Shown here piece after piece: positions 36,774 through 53,383 of a stretch of DNA of 64,000 bases; within the stretch, counting starts at the first letter, position 1, and each line of letters begins with the position of its first letter. Source of the DNA: Campylobacter lari subsp. lari (GTDB lineage Bacteria > Campylobacterota > Campylobacteria > Campylobacterales > Campylobacteraceae). Position numbers and translations under genes: made by a program. A model generated the notes under the pieces. It was not told the DNA's origin, did no database searches, and saw only the letters and a program-made list of their open reading frames with translations. The stretch covers positions 558,001-622,000 of the forward strand of contig NZ_CP053830.1 of NCBI RefSeq assembly GCF_013372185.1, read 5' to 3'.

Positions 36774-37133
36774 ATGAATTACGCAGCATTGATGAATAAT
36801 GGTTTTGATTTTTCAAAAAACTTAGTTAAAGCTCAGGCTCCAAAGGCTGGTGGTTTTTCATTTACTGATTTTCTAAGTAAAGGTTTTGATAATTTTAGTA
36901 AATGGGGGAATAAAGAAATAGCAAAAAATGGAGCAAGAACTAATTTTGATAGGCTTATAGACCTTGGTGGGCTTGCCGGAGGACTTTGGGGCGGATATGA
37001 AGAGCAGAAAATGGCAAAAAAGAATTTTGAGCTTCAAAAAGATGCTTACAATTTTAACAAATACTTAGCACAAGAGGAGCTTAGAAGAAGACAAAATAGA
37101 GAAAATAACTTAAAAGAAGTTTGGGCTAGTTAA
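36774..37133 (+). CDS. small virion protein, possible ejection protein
   Basis: A 119-residue protein with a short Gly-rich central helix (LIDLGGLAGGLWGGYEEQ) and a charged helical C-terminus. Similar small Gly-rich proteins accompany ejection proteins in podoviruses. It lies before two larger proteins of that type. Function inferred from position. Confidence 0.55.
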   Translation: MNYAALMNNGFDFSKNLVKAQAPKAGGFSFTDFLSKGFDNFSKWGNKEIAKNGARTNFDRLIDLGGLAGGLWGGYEEQKMAKKNFELQKDAYNFNKYLAQEELRRRQNRENNLKEVWAS

Positions 37134-37216
37134 AGTTTATGGATTTAAGAGTTTGTGTTTTTAAAGGGTAAATCTTAACCCCTCCTTTTTATAAGGAAGG
37201 GCTTTGCCTATTATTG

Positions 37217-37276
37217 CTAGTTTGCGTTGACAACAATAGTGCAAAGTAGTATAATAACTATTAAGATTTGTAGCAT
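37217..37276 (-). CDS. 19-residue hydrophobic peptide, candidate type I toxin A
   Basis: MLQILIVIILLCTIVVNAN, from ATG 37274-37276. GGTGG (37284-37288) lies seven bases upstream. On the mRNA this ribosome site pairs with CCACC (37298-37302), and the stem is extended by AAAT/ATTT. A minus-strand TATAAT (37349-37354) would start a 5' leader with an 11-bp hairpin (37310-37335). A homologous peptide with the same layout is at 52821-52883. Size and composition resemble E. coli Ibs peptides; toxicity untested. Confidence 0.65.
   Translation of the reverse strand: MLQILIVIILLCTIVVNAN
37227..37255 (+). promoter_or_regulatory. antisense promoter inside toxin A ORF
   Basis: Consensus TTGACA (37227-37232), 17-bp spacer and TATAAT (37250-37255) on the plus strand, lying within the minus-strand peptide ORF. 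A full -35 box is rare in Campylobacter, so this is likely strong. The same arrangement recurs at 52831-52859. Confidence 0.75.
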
Positions 37277-37350
37277 CTTATTTCCACCGCCTTTCTAGGT
37301 GGTAAATTAGTGCTAAGGGTGGCGACCCTTGGCACCACACCCTTTATAAT
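37262..37350 (+). ncRNA. candidate antitoxin RNA A
   Basis: A transcript from the promoter at 37227-37255 would start near 37262 and run antisense to the start codon, ribosome site and leader hairpin of the peptide mRNA. The 11-bp hairpin 37310-37335 (loop GGCG) near its expected 3' end is followed only by CCCTTTAT, so the exact end is unclear. Confidence 0.5.
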
Positions 37351-37372
37351 TATACACAAACCTTTCTTAAAT

Positions 37373-37398
37373 CCTTTATTTTAGATATTAAATAAAGG
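37373..37398 (+). promoter_or_regulatory. hairpin covering the ribosome site of the 372-residue protein
   Basis: CCTTTATTT (37373-37381) pairs perfectly with AAATAAAGG (37390-37398) around an 8-base loop. The AAAGG in the right arm is the ribosome site for the ATG at 37406, so this structure could limit translation. Confidence 0.5.
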
Positions 37399-37405
37399 TA
37401 AAAAA

Positions 37406-38524
37406 ATGGCACATTATAACCCACAACAAGTAGTATTTAATCCAAGTCTTGGTGTAATCCAAAATGCAGGAAAAGTAGGCGGAGTTTTATACGACAGTAT
37501 GAAACAATATAGAGAAGAAGAAAACAAAAGAAGACTTTTGGCGCAGCAAGATGAAGAATTAAAAGCTCGACAAGAGCAAAATGAGATTAATAATGCTTTT
37601 TTAAATAATAATTTATTGCAAAAGGAAAGAGCTTTTGAGTATGCTATGGAGCAAGATAGAATAAAGAATAATTTAGCTTTGCAAGATTTGCTTTTTAAAA
37701 AAGAAAAAATAGACTTAGAACAAGCAAAAGAACAAAAACAAAACCAACTTTTAGCAGAACAAGCAATGCTTAATTTACCAAGTTATACAAAGTCAAATCC
37801 GGAGATGAGAGCAATAGAAGAAAGATTTAATACCATAAAAAAAGCCGGTGGCAGTTCTTATTATGATGGGCAAGGGCTTTTGGGCGGAACTTGGCAAAAT
37901 ATAAAAGGACTTTTTGGAGCAGATAATATAAATGATGCTCAAGATAGCTTATTTAAATTTATGAGTGATGGTATTTATAATGAAAAAGTTAGAAGAGATA
38001 CAACTTATAACAGAACAAGGCATGATGAAATTTATAAAGAGCCTTCAGCTTGGAAGCCACAAACCATAAATGCTAAAGAATTTGAAAGAATAACAAGAGA
38101 TTATATAGCTGTTAATGAGGCTAAGATTAATGCTTACTATGATGAGCAAATGGCAAAGATTTCTAATTTAAAAAATCCTTACATTAATCATCTTTATGAA
38201 GAGCAAAGACAAAAAAGTTTAAAAGGTTTTAGAGAGGGTTTAGCAAAAAAGCTTAGTGATTATTATATTAAAGATGGAAAGTATGACAAACCTAGCGAAA
38301 AAGCAATTACAGTAGAAAATCAAAAAACAAAAGAGGCTCAGCAAAATTCTCATAACTTATTAGCGTTTGCTAATAATCAAAAATTTTATGATGTGAATTT
38401 AGGAGGCTTTGAGGCACAAATTTCTGAACCTGATTCCAATGGAAATGTTATTTTAATCAACAGCGTAGGAAAAAGAAAACAAGTAAGCTTGGAAGAACTA
38501 AGAAAAGAGGGGTTAGTAAAATGA
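37406..38524 (+). CDS. helical virion protein, probable ejection protein
   Basis: A 372-residue protein with extended coiled coil (about 28-125; Glu/Gln/Lys-rich) and a mixed second half. It overlaps the 1211-residue gene by 4 bp. Such pairs (medium coiled-coil protein then giant protein) are typical internal/ejection proteins of short-tailed phages. No enzymatic motif seen. Confidence 0.6.
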   Translation: MAHYNPQQVVFNPSLGVIQNAGKVGGVLYDSMKQYREEENKRRLLAQQDEELKARQEQNEINNAFLNNNLLQKERAFEYAMEQDRIKNNLALQDLLFKKEKIDLEQAKEQKQNQLLAEQAMLNLPSYTKSNPEMRAIEERFNTIKKAGGSSYYDGQGLLGGTWQNIKGLFGADNINDAQDSLFKFMSDGIYNEKVRRDTTYNRTRHDEIYKEPSAWKPQTINAKEFERITRDYIAVNEAKINAYYDEQMAKISNLKNPYINHLYEEQRQKSLKGFREGLAKKLSDYYIKDGKYDKPSEKAITVENQKTKEAQQNSHNLLAFANNQKFYDVNLGGFEAQISEPDSNGNVILINSVGKRKQVSLEELRKEGLVK

Positions 38525-42156: not shown

Positions 42157-42322
42157 TATTATCGCCCCTAGCTCAGCCGATACGCACTGAAGCTAGGCTT
42201 AATACTGACACTTTAAGCGTGAGTAGTGCCAATGGCGATTATTAATTATATCATAAATCCATATAATATTTTAAAATTAAAAGATGTTGGAATTGTTGCT
42301 GTTTTTGAAAAGATTTAAGAGA
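42157..42322 (+). other. intergenic remnant with hairpin, no clear gene
   Basis: The first 80 bases are richer in GC than the surroundings. They include CCTAGCT / AGCTAGG arms and a stop-free frame (RTEARLNTDTLSVSSANGDY) without a start, which looks like the end of a lost gene. A 28-codon ORF (ATG 42232) lacks a ribosome site. Probably a recombination scar before the minus-strand island. Confidence 0.4.
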
Positions 42323-42354
42323 AAAAGCAAGAAGGTAGCAACTCTCTTGCTTTT
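42323..42354 (+). terminator. terminator between ejection gene and regulatory island
   Basis: Stem AAAAGCAAGA / TCTTGCTTTT (10 bp, 12-base loop) with built-in A and T tails, so it can end transcripts in both directions. A second hairpin, AAGGGC / GCCCTT, follows at 42358-42377. Confidence 0.7.
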
Positions 42355-42459
42355 ATAAAGGGCGAGATTCTGCCCTTAAACTCTTAATTAAAATTCTAAC
42401 AAACAAAGCTAAAAACAAAATTAAGTTAGCTTTGATTTGTCTTGTTTTTTAAATGTAAA

Positions 42460-43434: not shown

Positions 43435-43494
43435 TTGACAATATAACTAAATAATGTTATAATTTACTCATAAAACAAATGATTTATTTGTTTT
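43435..43494 (+). promoter_or_regulatory. Rha promoter and operator
   Basis: TTGACA (43435-43440), 17-bp spacer and TATAAT (43458-43463). Just downstream is the inverted repeat AAAACAAAT-GATTT-ATTTGTTTT (43472-43494), followed by another AAAACAAA half-site at about 43501-43508, next to the ribosome site. A repressor bound there would block the promoter. Confidence 0.8.
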
Positions 43495-52751: not shown

Positions 52752-52820
52752 AAAGGAGATAAAAGTTTAAGTAAGCCAAAGGTGGTATTCTAGCTCCCCT
52801 TTTTAAAGGGGAAATCAAAG

Positions 52821-52883
52821 CTAATAAGCCTTGACTATAATTATACAAAGTAGTATAATTATTACTAGAATTTTATGGTTCAA
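52821..52883 (-). CDS. 20-residue hydrophobic peptide, candidate type I toxin B
   Basis: From TTG 52881-52883 the peptide is MNHKILVIIILLCIIIVKAY, homologous to peptide A (shared IL, ILLC, V-x-A pattern). GTG at 52890-52892 is an alternative start. AGGTGG (52892-52897) is the ribosome site and lies in a 9-bp stem (52887-52895 with 52904-52912, one mismatch). A minus-strand TATAAT (52953-52958) and an 11-bp leader hairpin (52913-52940) complete the same layout as locus A. Confidence 0.6.
   Translation of the reverse strand: MNHKILVIIILLCIIIVKAY
52831..52859 (+). promoter_or_regulatory. antisense promoter inside toxin B ORF
   Basis: TTGACT (52831-52836), 17-bp spacer and TATAAT (52854-52859) on the plus strand within the peptide ORF; CAAAGTAG before the -10 box is the same as at locus A. 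Confidence 0.75.
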
Positions 52884-52950
52884 TTTAATCACCACCTAAC
52901 TGAGTGTTGATTAACACCAAAGGCGGCCACCTTTGGTGTTCCACCCTTTG
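52866..52950 (+). ncRNA. candidate antitoxin RNA B
   Basis: A transcript from the promoter at 52831-52859 would start near 52866 and cover the peptide start, ribosome site and leader hairpin (AACACCAAAGG / CCTTTGGTGTT, loop CGGCCA). It might read on into the spanin genes; no T-run marks its end. Confidence 0.5.
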
Positions 52951-52990: not shown

Positions 52991-53383
52991 ATGATAAATC
53001 TTTTATTTAAAAACACAAAGCTTTATATTGCTTTAGCATTAATGCTTATGCTTAATGTATTTTTATATCTTAAGCTAGATAGCACAAACGCAAAATTAGA
53101 AAAAAGTCAAAGTGATTTAAATTTAGCTTTGGGTGTAAATAATGAACTCACGAGGATTACTCAGGAGTTGAAAGCAAGACACGAACAAGAGCTAAAAGCA
53201 CTATTTCATGCAAATACTCAAAAAAATCAAATCAAAACAAGGGTTGATGATGTTAAAAACTATATATCCAAAAGCAATGAAACTAATACCACTAAGCTTT
53301 TTAATGCTATGCTTGATAGGCTGTGGGAGCAAAACACAAGTATTAACCAAAATACAAATTCAAAAAGTACAAATACCAAATGA
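52991..53383 (+). CDS. inner-membrane spanin (Rz-like)
   Basis: A 130-residue protein with one N-terminal transmembrane helix (about 10-27) followed by a periplasmic coiled coil. The last third is nested with the lipoprotein gene in another frame, the hallmark of Rz/Rz1 pairs, which fuse inner and outer membranes at lysis. Position after the DUF5675 gene fits. Confidence 0.8.
   Translation: MINLLFKNTKLYIALALMLMLNVFLYLKLDSTNAKLEKSQSDLNLALGVNNELTRITQELKARHEQELKALFHANTQKNQIKTRVDDVKNYISKSNETNTTKLFNAMLDRLWEQNTSINQNTNSKSTNTK

What the first reader, a model, noticed from the sequence alone, without database searches (positions are those of the whole stretch)
37140..37360. Candidate type I toxin-antitoxin locus A inside the late region
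The minus strand encodes a 19-residue hydrophobic peptide (MLQILIVIILLCTIVVNAN). Its ribosome site GGTGG is paired with CCACC and its leader has an 11-bp hairpin. On the plus strand a near-perfect promoter (TTGACA, 17 bp, TATAAT) sits inside the peptide ORF and fires across its start codon. This is the architecture of Ibs/Sib and AapA/IsoA systems. I know of no description in this phage family.
Basis: partly seen in the sequence, partly recalled or inferred. Interest (0 to 1): 0.88.

Follow-up and report, generated by a model that had tools for sequence, protein, structure and literature searches.

The report
Phage-borne peptide toxin with antisense antitoxin
A Campylobacter prophage carries, among its virus-building genes, a tiny gene for a 19-residue membrane-type peptide whose message folds shut on itself and is overlapped by an opposing RNA; it belongs to a large class of toxin-antitoxin modules of a known kind, and nearly all copies face against the genes around them, which suggests that the host element's own transcription may help to silence the toxin.

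Summary
The minus strand encodes MLQILIVIILLCTIVVNAN; a perfect TTGACA-17-TATAAT promoter lies on the plus strand inside that ORF. The module spans 37155-37345. It is one of a large family: four copies in this genome, 35 of 49 Campylobacter genomes, many Helicobacter, phages and plasmids. The peptide frame is conserved, not just the DNA. The toxin mRNA has two co-varying long-range pairings (ORF with 3'UTR, 5' end with 3' end) and a sequestered Shine-Dalgarno site, the logic of H. pylori aapA/IsoA. The peptide is Ibs-sized and unlike AapA, and my covariance model does not recover H. pylori AapA loci: it works like AapA/IsoA but is a separate subfamily by these tests. New here: the modules sit in phage late and plasmid transfer operons, antiparallel to both neighbours in 73 of 82 contexts (parallel to both in one); different toxin types swap at the same site; a phage 99% identical upstream lacks the module and has a 10-bp hairpin there. 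From memory, Arnion et al. 2017 reported similar systems in Campylobacter, so the kind is known. Interest moderate.

The parts
37155..37345 (-). toxin mRNA (predicted full-length, R1 model span)
   Evidence: covariance model match 143.7 bits, E 1e-31; fold z -7.0
37217..37276 (-). toxin ORF MLQILIVIILLCTIVVNAN plus stop
   Evidence: sequence; coding conservation in 43 distinct promoter-spacer sequences
37284..37291 (-). Shine-Dalgarno GGCGGTGG, sequestered
   Evidence: sequence; helix 3
37297..37302 (-). anti-SD strand CCACCT; can alternatively pair with the 5' end
37349..37354 (-). toxin promoter -10 TATAAT
   Evidence: sequence; upstream of the 5' end in nearly all homologues
37339..37345 (-). 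5' end AAAGGGT, pairs with 3' ACCCTTT
37163..37169 (-). 3' end ACCCTTT, partner of the 5' end
37260..37269 (-). ORF segment AAATCTTAAT (codons 3-6), pairs with the 3' UTR
   Evidence: own pairing far above swapped partners
37170..37179 (-). 3' UTR segment GTTAAGATTT, partner of the ORF segment
37227..37255 (+). antitoxin promoter TTGACA-17-TATAAT inside the toxin ORF
37262..37345 (+). predicted antitoxin RNA (3' end not determined), antisense to first codons, SD and leader
   Evidence: inferred from the promoter; fold z -4.9 (folded to 37400)
37141..37158 (+). left arm of outer inverted repeat (GGATTTAAGA GTTTGTGT)
   Evidence: closes the module in operon-sense RNA
37354..37374 (+). right arm of outer inverted repeat (ACACAAAC ... 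TCTTAAATCC)
   Evidence: the outer 10 bp persist as a hairpin in the empty-site phage
36774..37133 (+). upstream late gene (119 aa, phrog_6508)
37406..38524 (+). downstream late gene (372 aa, phrog_10391)
52770..52949 (-). second module of the same family (toxin LNHKILVIIILLCIIIVKAY, ORF 52883-52821, TTG start)
   Evidence: R1 176.3 bits

Best explanation
It is a type I toxin-antitoxin module of AapA/IsoA-like design carried as cargo in the late operon of a Campylobacter prophage. The minus strand makes a short mRNA for a 19-residue hydrophobic, presumably inner-membrane peptide. The nascent mRNA hides its SD in a leader hairpin; the finished mRNA is further locked by two long-range pairings with its 3' UTR, so it should accumulate untranslated. 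3' trimming would loosen the lock. A strong plus-strand promoter inside the ORF makes an RNA antisense to the start region and leader, which should pair with the loosened mRNA and lead to its loss. When the antitoxin is no longer replenished (loss of the element, or transcription shut-off by an invader) the toxin would be made. Shown by sequence: ORF, promoters, co-varying structure, family, mobile context, orientation. Inferred: transcripts, 3' processing, RNA-RNA inhibition, toxicity, and the role (element maintenance or phage exclusion).
For: Homologues: 4 copies in this genome, 35 of 49 genus genomes, 40 of 121 Helicobacteraceae genomes, at least 120 viral stretches by pattern, 34 Campylobacter plasmids, two isolated phages. 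Coding: in the 18-nt promoter spacer codon-position entropy is 0.94/0.41/1.16, no in-frame stop in 43 distinct spacers, hydropathy 3.5 against at most 1.9 in shuffles; 119 of 128 copies have an intact SD-led ORF. mRNA: ORF-3'UTR pairing 19.8 against 12.7 +/- 0.4 for swapped partners, 0 of 20000, 38 of 39 classes above median; 5'-3' pairing 21.7 against 17.5 +/- 0.4; two-sided compensatory changes. Removing the 3' end that pairs with the 5' end lowers SD opening energy in 25 of 28 copies (11.2 to 9.0 kcal/mol); SD closed within about 20 nt of being made. Antisense promoter kept.
Against: No RNA or toxicity data. Deeper truncation that also removes the ORF partner does not open the SD on average, so the activation step is only partly supported. 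No intrinsic terminator was found for either RNA. Many members use TTG or GTG starts. A few copies are broken, e.g. L009:2264-2440 and L065, and the module is lost from site A in two phages.
Confidence: 0.85

Rival explanations
1. Operon-gated toxin (an extension of the best explanation): the orientation is functional. Read-through of the phage late operon (or plasmid transfer operon) makes a full-length antisense of the toxin mRNA, a second antitoxin, so the toxin stays off while the element runs its own programme and can act when another agent shuts transcription off.
For: Toxin antiparallel to both flanking genes in 73 of 82 copies with both flanks scored, parallel to both in 1; by distinct gene context 24 against 2, p 1e-5. 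Annotated plasmids and phages agree. No intrinsic terminator between the genes. In operon sense the module is closed by an 18-bp stem, z -8.2.
Against: The same bias would arise simply because sense insertions would let operon read-through make toxin and be lost. No expression data.
Confidence: 0.35
2. A pair of regulatory RNAs derived from a degenerate TA, without a functional peptide.
For: Some copies are broken. PMC8687705 mentions that sRNAs such as NikS may derive from degenerate type I TAs.
Against: The peptide frame is under selection across the family, and is intact here and in 119 of 128 copies.
Confidence: 0.07
3. A mobile, MITE-like insertion whose terminal inverted repeats are the point and whose TA content is passenger.
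For: Outer inverted repeats co-vary (21.2 against 17.2 +/- 0.5 swapped); empty site L268 has a 10-bp hairpin where the window has 224 nt between arm starts; different toxin types at the same site.
Against: Repeats differ between sites, are weak or absent in many Helicobacter copies, and no transposase or target duplication was seen; swapping by homologous recombination explains the exchange.
Confidence: 0.1
4. Chance hydrophobic ORF and promoter in AT-rich intergenic DNA.
For: Promoter-like matches are common in this DNA.
Against: Family-wide conservation with compensatory changes; model match E 1e-31.
Confidence: 0.01

Closest known systems
aapA/IsoA (Helicobacter pylori, AapA1, AapA3)
   Same: Hydrophobic peptide; cis antisense RNA whose -10 box lies in the toxin ORF; SD sequestered in a hairpin; 5'-3' long-distance pairing in which the 3' end mimics one arm of the 5' hairpin (AapA1 CCCCCATAAGT:ACTTATGGGGG).
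   Different: AapA1 is 30 residues ending in KR; here 19-22 residues, usually ending VKAY (VNAN at this locus). No peptide alignment. The antisense -10 is encoded in another frame (II codons here, TLY in AapA1). Model R1 does not find H. pylori AapA. Here on phages and plasmids.
Ibs/Sib (Escherichia coli)
   Same: 19-residue hydrophobic toxin, antisense RNA (IbsC described in PMC8309996).
   Different: No Sib family match in Rfam, no Pfam match; antisense promoter here sits inside the toxin ORF; the fold-back mRNA architecture is AapA-like.
Prophage type I TAs such as sprG1/SprF1 of Staphylococcus aureus (PMC10579593, abstract)
   Same: Type I TA carried by a prophage.
   Different: Unrelated peptide and RNA; no operon-antiparallel rule known to me.

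Membership tests
Type I toxin-antitoxin | small hydrophobic peptide ORF with SD, conserved as protein | tested here: met
Type I toxin-antitoxin | antisense RNA promoter overlapping the toxin gene | tested here: met
   promoter sequence only:
Type I toxin-antitoxin | peptide toxic, RNA neutralises it | not testable with these tools
   needs expression
AapA/IsoA | 5'-3' long-distance interaction in the toxin mRNA | tested here: met
   same in H. pylori loci
AapA/IsoA | SD sequestered by leader hairpin, early in transcription | tested here: met
   predicted fold and covariation only
AapA/IsoA | 3'-end trimming makes the mRNA translatable | tested here: inconclusive
   short trimming lowers SD opening energy in 25 of 28; deeper trimming mixed
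AapA/IsoA | peptide related to AapA | tested here: not met
   no BLASTP alignment with AapA1-28
AapA/IsoA | same RNA family by covariance model | tested here: not met
   17 genomes of the H. pylori genus carrying VacA: best E 0.026; the hits inspected were mostly tRNA genes, none an AapA locus
AapA/IsoA | RNase III degradation of the duplex | not testable with these tools
   needs an RNase III mutant and RNA blots
Ibs/Sib | 18-19 residue hydrophobic peptide | tested here: met
   19 residues; IbsC is 19
Ibs/Sib | Sib RNA family | tested here: not met
   no Rfam match to Sib
Ibs/Sib | peptide in a described Ibs family | tested here: inconclusive
   no Pfam or NCBIfam match, but queries of 20-22 residues are at the limit and the 19-residue one could not be sent

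The most novel reading that the evidence does not exclude
A toxin-antitoxin family whose members are placed inside phage and plasmid operons so that the operon's own transcription acts as a second antitoxin, letting the element tell its own activity from foreign interference; modules swap as units in the loop of an intergenic hairpin.
Probability: 0.3. Interest if true: 0.78.

Novelty: new variant of a known kind. Interest (0 to 1): 0.58.

Why it matters
It shows that fold-locked AapA-like type I modules are common cargo of Campylobacter and Helicobacter mobile DNA, gives a natural set of co-varying variants for testing the 5'-3' and ORF-3'UTR locks, and supplies a strict placement rule that makes a concrete question testable: does host-operon transcription silence the toxin? 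Closely matched phages with and without the module exist for that test.

Tried and rejected
Rfam (no relevant match). Pfam and NCBIfam with 20-22 residue members (nothing relevant). Solved structures (none). R1 in H. pylori: matches were mostly tRNA genes and none an AapA locus, so rejected as kinship; L080-L082 likewise. The first ORF-3'UTR test on the wide set used a window that cut off the partner and was redone (one search replaced). Equilibrium folding did not show a clean on/off switch. Arnion et al. 2017 is not held, so its statement on Campylobacter is from memory. Searches for a description in Campylobacter phages found none in the library.

Full report
What is there. The window is bases 558001-622000 of a 1.51-Mb genome whose same-genus set includes contigs matching by length C. 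coli, C. jejuni, C. estrildidarum and C. helveticus records, so it is a Campylobacter. Locus A lies between two late genes of a prophage, downstream of terminase and portal-type genes. The predicted mRNA folds far better than shuffles (z -7.0), and its closing helix joins the 5' AAGGGU to the 3' ACCCUUU.

More than chance. The same segment finds three more copies in the genome: B at 52770-52949 in this window, and two at about 834.6 and 835.5 kb. BLASTN finds matches in 21 of 49 genomes of the genus (a few of the weakest are spurious). A covariance model from 30 homologues (R1) finds 35 of 49, 28 of 299 over the order (L080-L082 are tRNA false positives) and 40 of 121 Helicobacteraceae. Named hosts include C. 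coli, C. jejuni, H. pullorum, H. rodentium, H. apodemus and H. turcicus. Two isolated Campylobacter phages carry the orthologue of A at 89% identity, and 34 Campylobacter plasmids carry relatives. The peptide is not annotated in either phage; a different small ORF is.

Is it a peptide gene? The ORF overlaps the antisense promoter, so identity alone could reflect the promoter. In the promoter spacer, where neither hexamer constrains the sequence, 43 distinct spacers show no in-frame stop, second codon positions vary least (0.41 bits against 0.94 and 1.16), and hydropathy is 3.5 against at most 1.9 in 2000 shuffles. A pN/pS ratio by itself did not single out this frame (0.47 here, 0.42 in a frame full of stops), so the case rests on the other three measures. 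119 of 128 copies with distinct flanks keep an SD-led ORF; a few are frameshifted or lack a start. The copies were picked by the promoter core, so promoter conservation was checked separately.

How the mRNA is built. Every class has its own sequence for a segment of ORF codons about 3-6 and its own matching 3' UTR segment, e.g. AAATCTTAAT:GTTAAGATTT here, ATTCTAGT:GCTAGAAT in B, ATTATCCT:AGGATAAT in C. Own partners score 19.8 against 12.7 +/- 0.4 for swapped partners, 0 of 20000, and 38 of 39 classes exceed their median (first seen). The 5' end or the 5' hairpin arm likewise matches its own 3' end (21.7 against 17.5 +/- 0.4). On the alignment, 12 pairs show two-sided changes. A competing pairing of the 5' GGGUG with the anti-SD strand is formed by 92% of cells. 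Trimming about 10 nt of the 3' end lowers the cost of opening SD and start codon from 11.2 to 9.0 kcal/mol, in 25 of 28 copies, but removing the ORF partner as well brings it back up. So lock-and-trim is plausible, not proven.

Antitoxin. The plus-strand promoter matches 10 or more of 12 consensus bases in 35 of 36 homologues outside the training set (the remaining one, L293, may be a coordinate error of mine). This stands out because sigma-70 promoters of C. jejuni mostly lack a -35 box (Dugar et al. 2013, PMC3656092). The RNA would start near 37262 and cover the first codons, SD and leader. Its 3' end is unknown.

Placement. The toxin gene is antiparallel to both neighbours in 73 copies, mixed in 8 and parallel to both in 1, among 82 with both flanks scored. 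Collapsed to distinct gene contexts it is 24 against 2; flanking genes there are mechanical ORF calls, but annotated plasmid and phage records agree. At site A, 58 fetched sequences (some of them overlapping fetches) hold 10 toxin types between the same two genes; at site B 28 hold 8. Two phages lack the module at site A. One, L268, is 99.3% identical upstream to an occupied phage, has 15 nt where the other has 225, and shows a perfect 10-bp hairpin GGATTTAAGG-GGTTA-CCTTAAATCC (19 of 20000 shuffles have one). The arms flank the module in occupied phages, so the module sits in the loop, and operon-sense RNA is closed by an 18-bp stem (z -8.2). Whether the empty hairpin is the ancestral site or a deletion scar cannot be told. 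Outer arms co-vary over many copies but are weak in several Helicobacter ones.

What it is and is not. It works like H. pylori aapA/IsoA: the H. pylori loci show the same 5'-3' pairing and antisense -10 in the ORF (Masachis et al. 2019; review PMC8322730). As a family it is separate by my tests: no peptide alignment and R1 does not recover H. pylori AapA loci. The peptide size is that of Ibs. From memory, not checked because the paper is not held, Arnion et al. 2017 reported homologous mRNA structures in many Helicobacter and Campylobacter genomes; these modules may well be among them. I therefore call it a new variant of a known kind; the parts I have not seen described are the phage and plasmid late-operon setting, the orientation rule, the unit exchange at fixed sites and the breadth of the covariation evidence.

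Function. Element maintenance or exclusion of other phages are the likely roles, by analogy only. The orientation rule fits either operon gating or purging of sense insertions; the data do not separate these.

Noticed in passing
window 52770-52949 (-): Second module of the same family beside an Rz-like spanin gene (52991-53383); in other phages this site holds other toxin types.
   Followed up: yes
window 43435-43463 (+): Another perfect TTGACA-17-TATAAT that is not part of the family.
   Followed up: no
window 42316-42394 (+): Weak R1 match (E 0.05), possibly a remnant.
   Followed up: no
   Followed up: partly
L268 near 1944: Empty site A in a phage contig 99% identical upstream; a 10-bp hairpin is there instead.
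   Followed up: yes
L316 (PV052265.1): Record filed under Rountreeviridae, Minhovirus, although it is a Campylobacter phage; the taxonomy looks odd.
   Followed up: no
L055:1501-1674: One of two contexts in which the toxin runs parallel to both neighbours.
   Followed up: no
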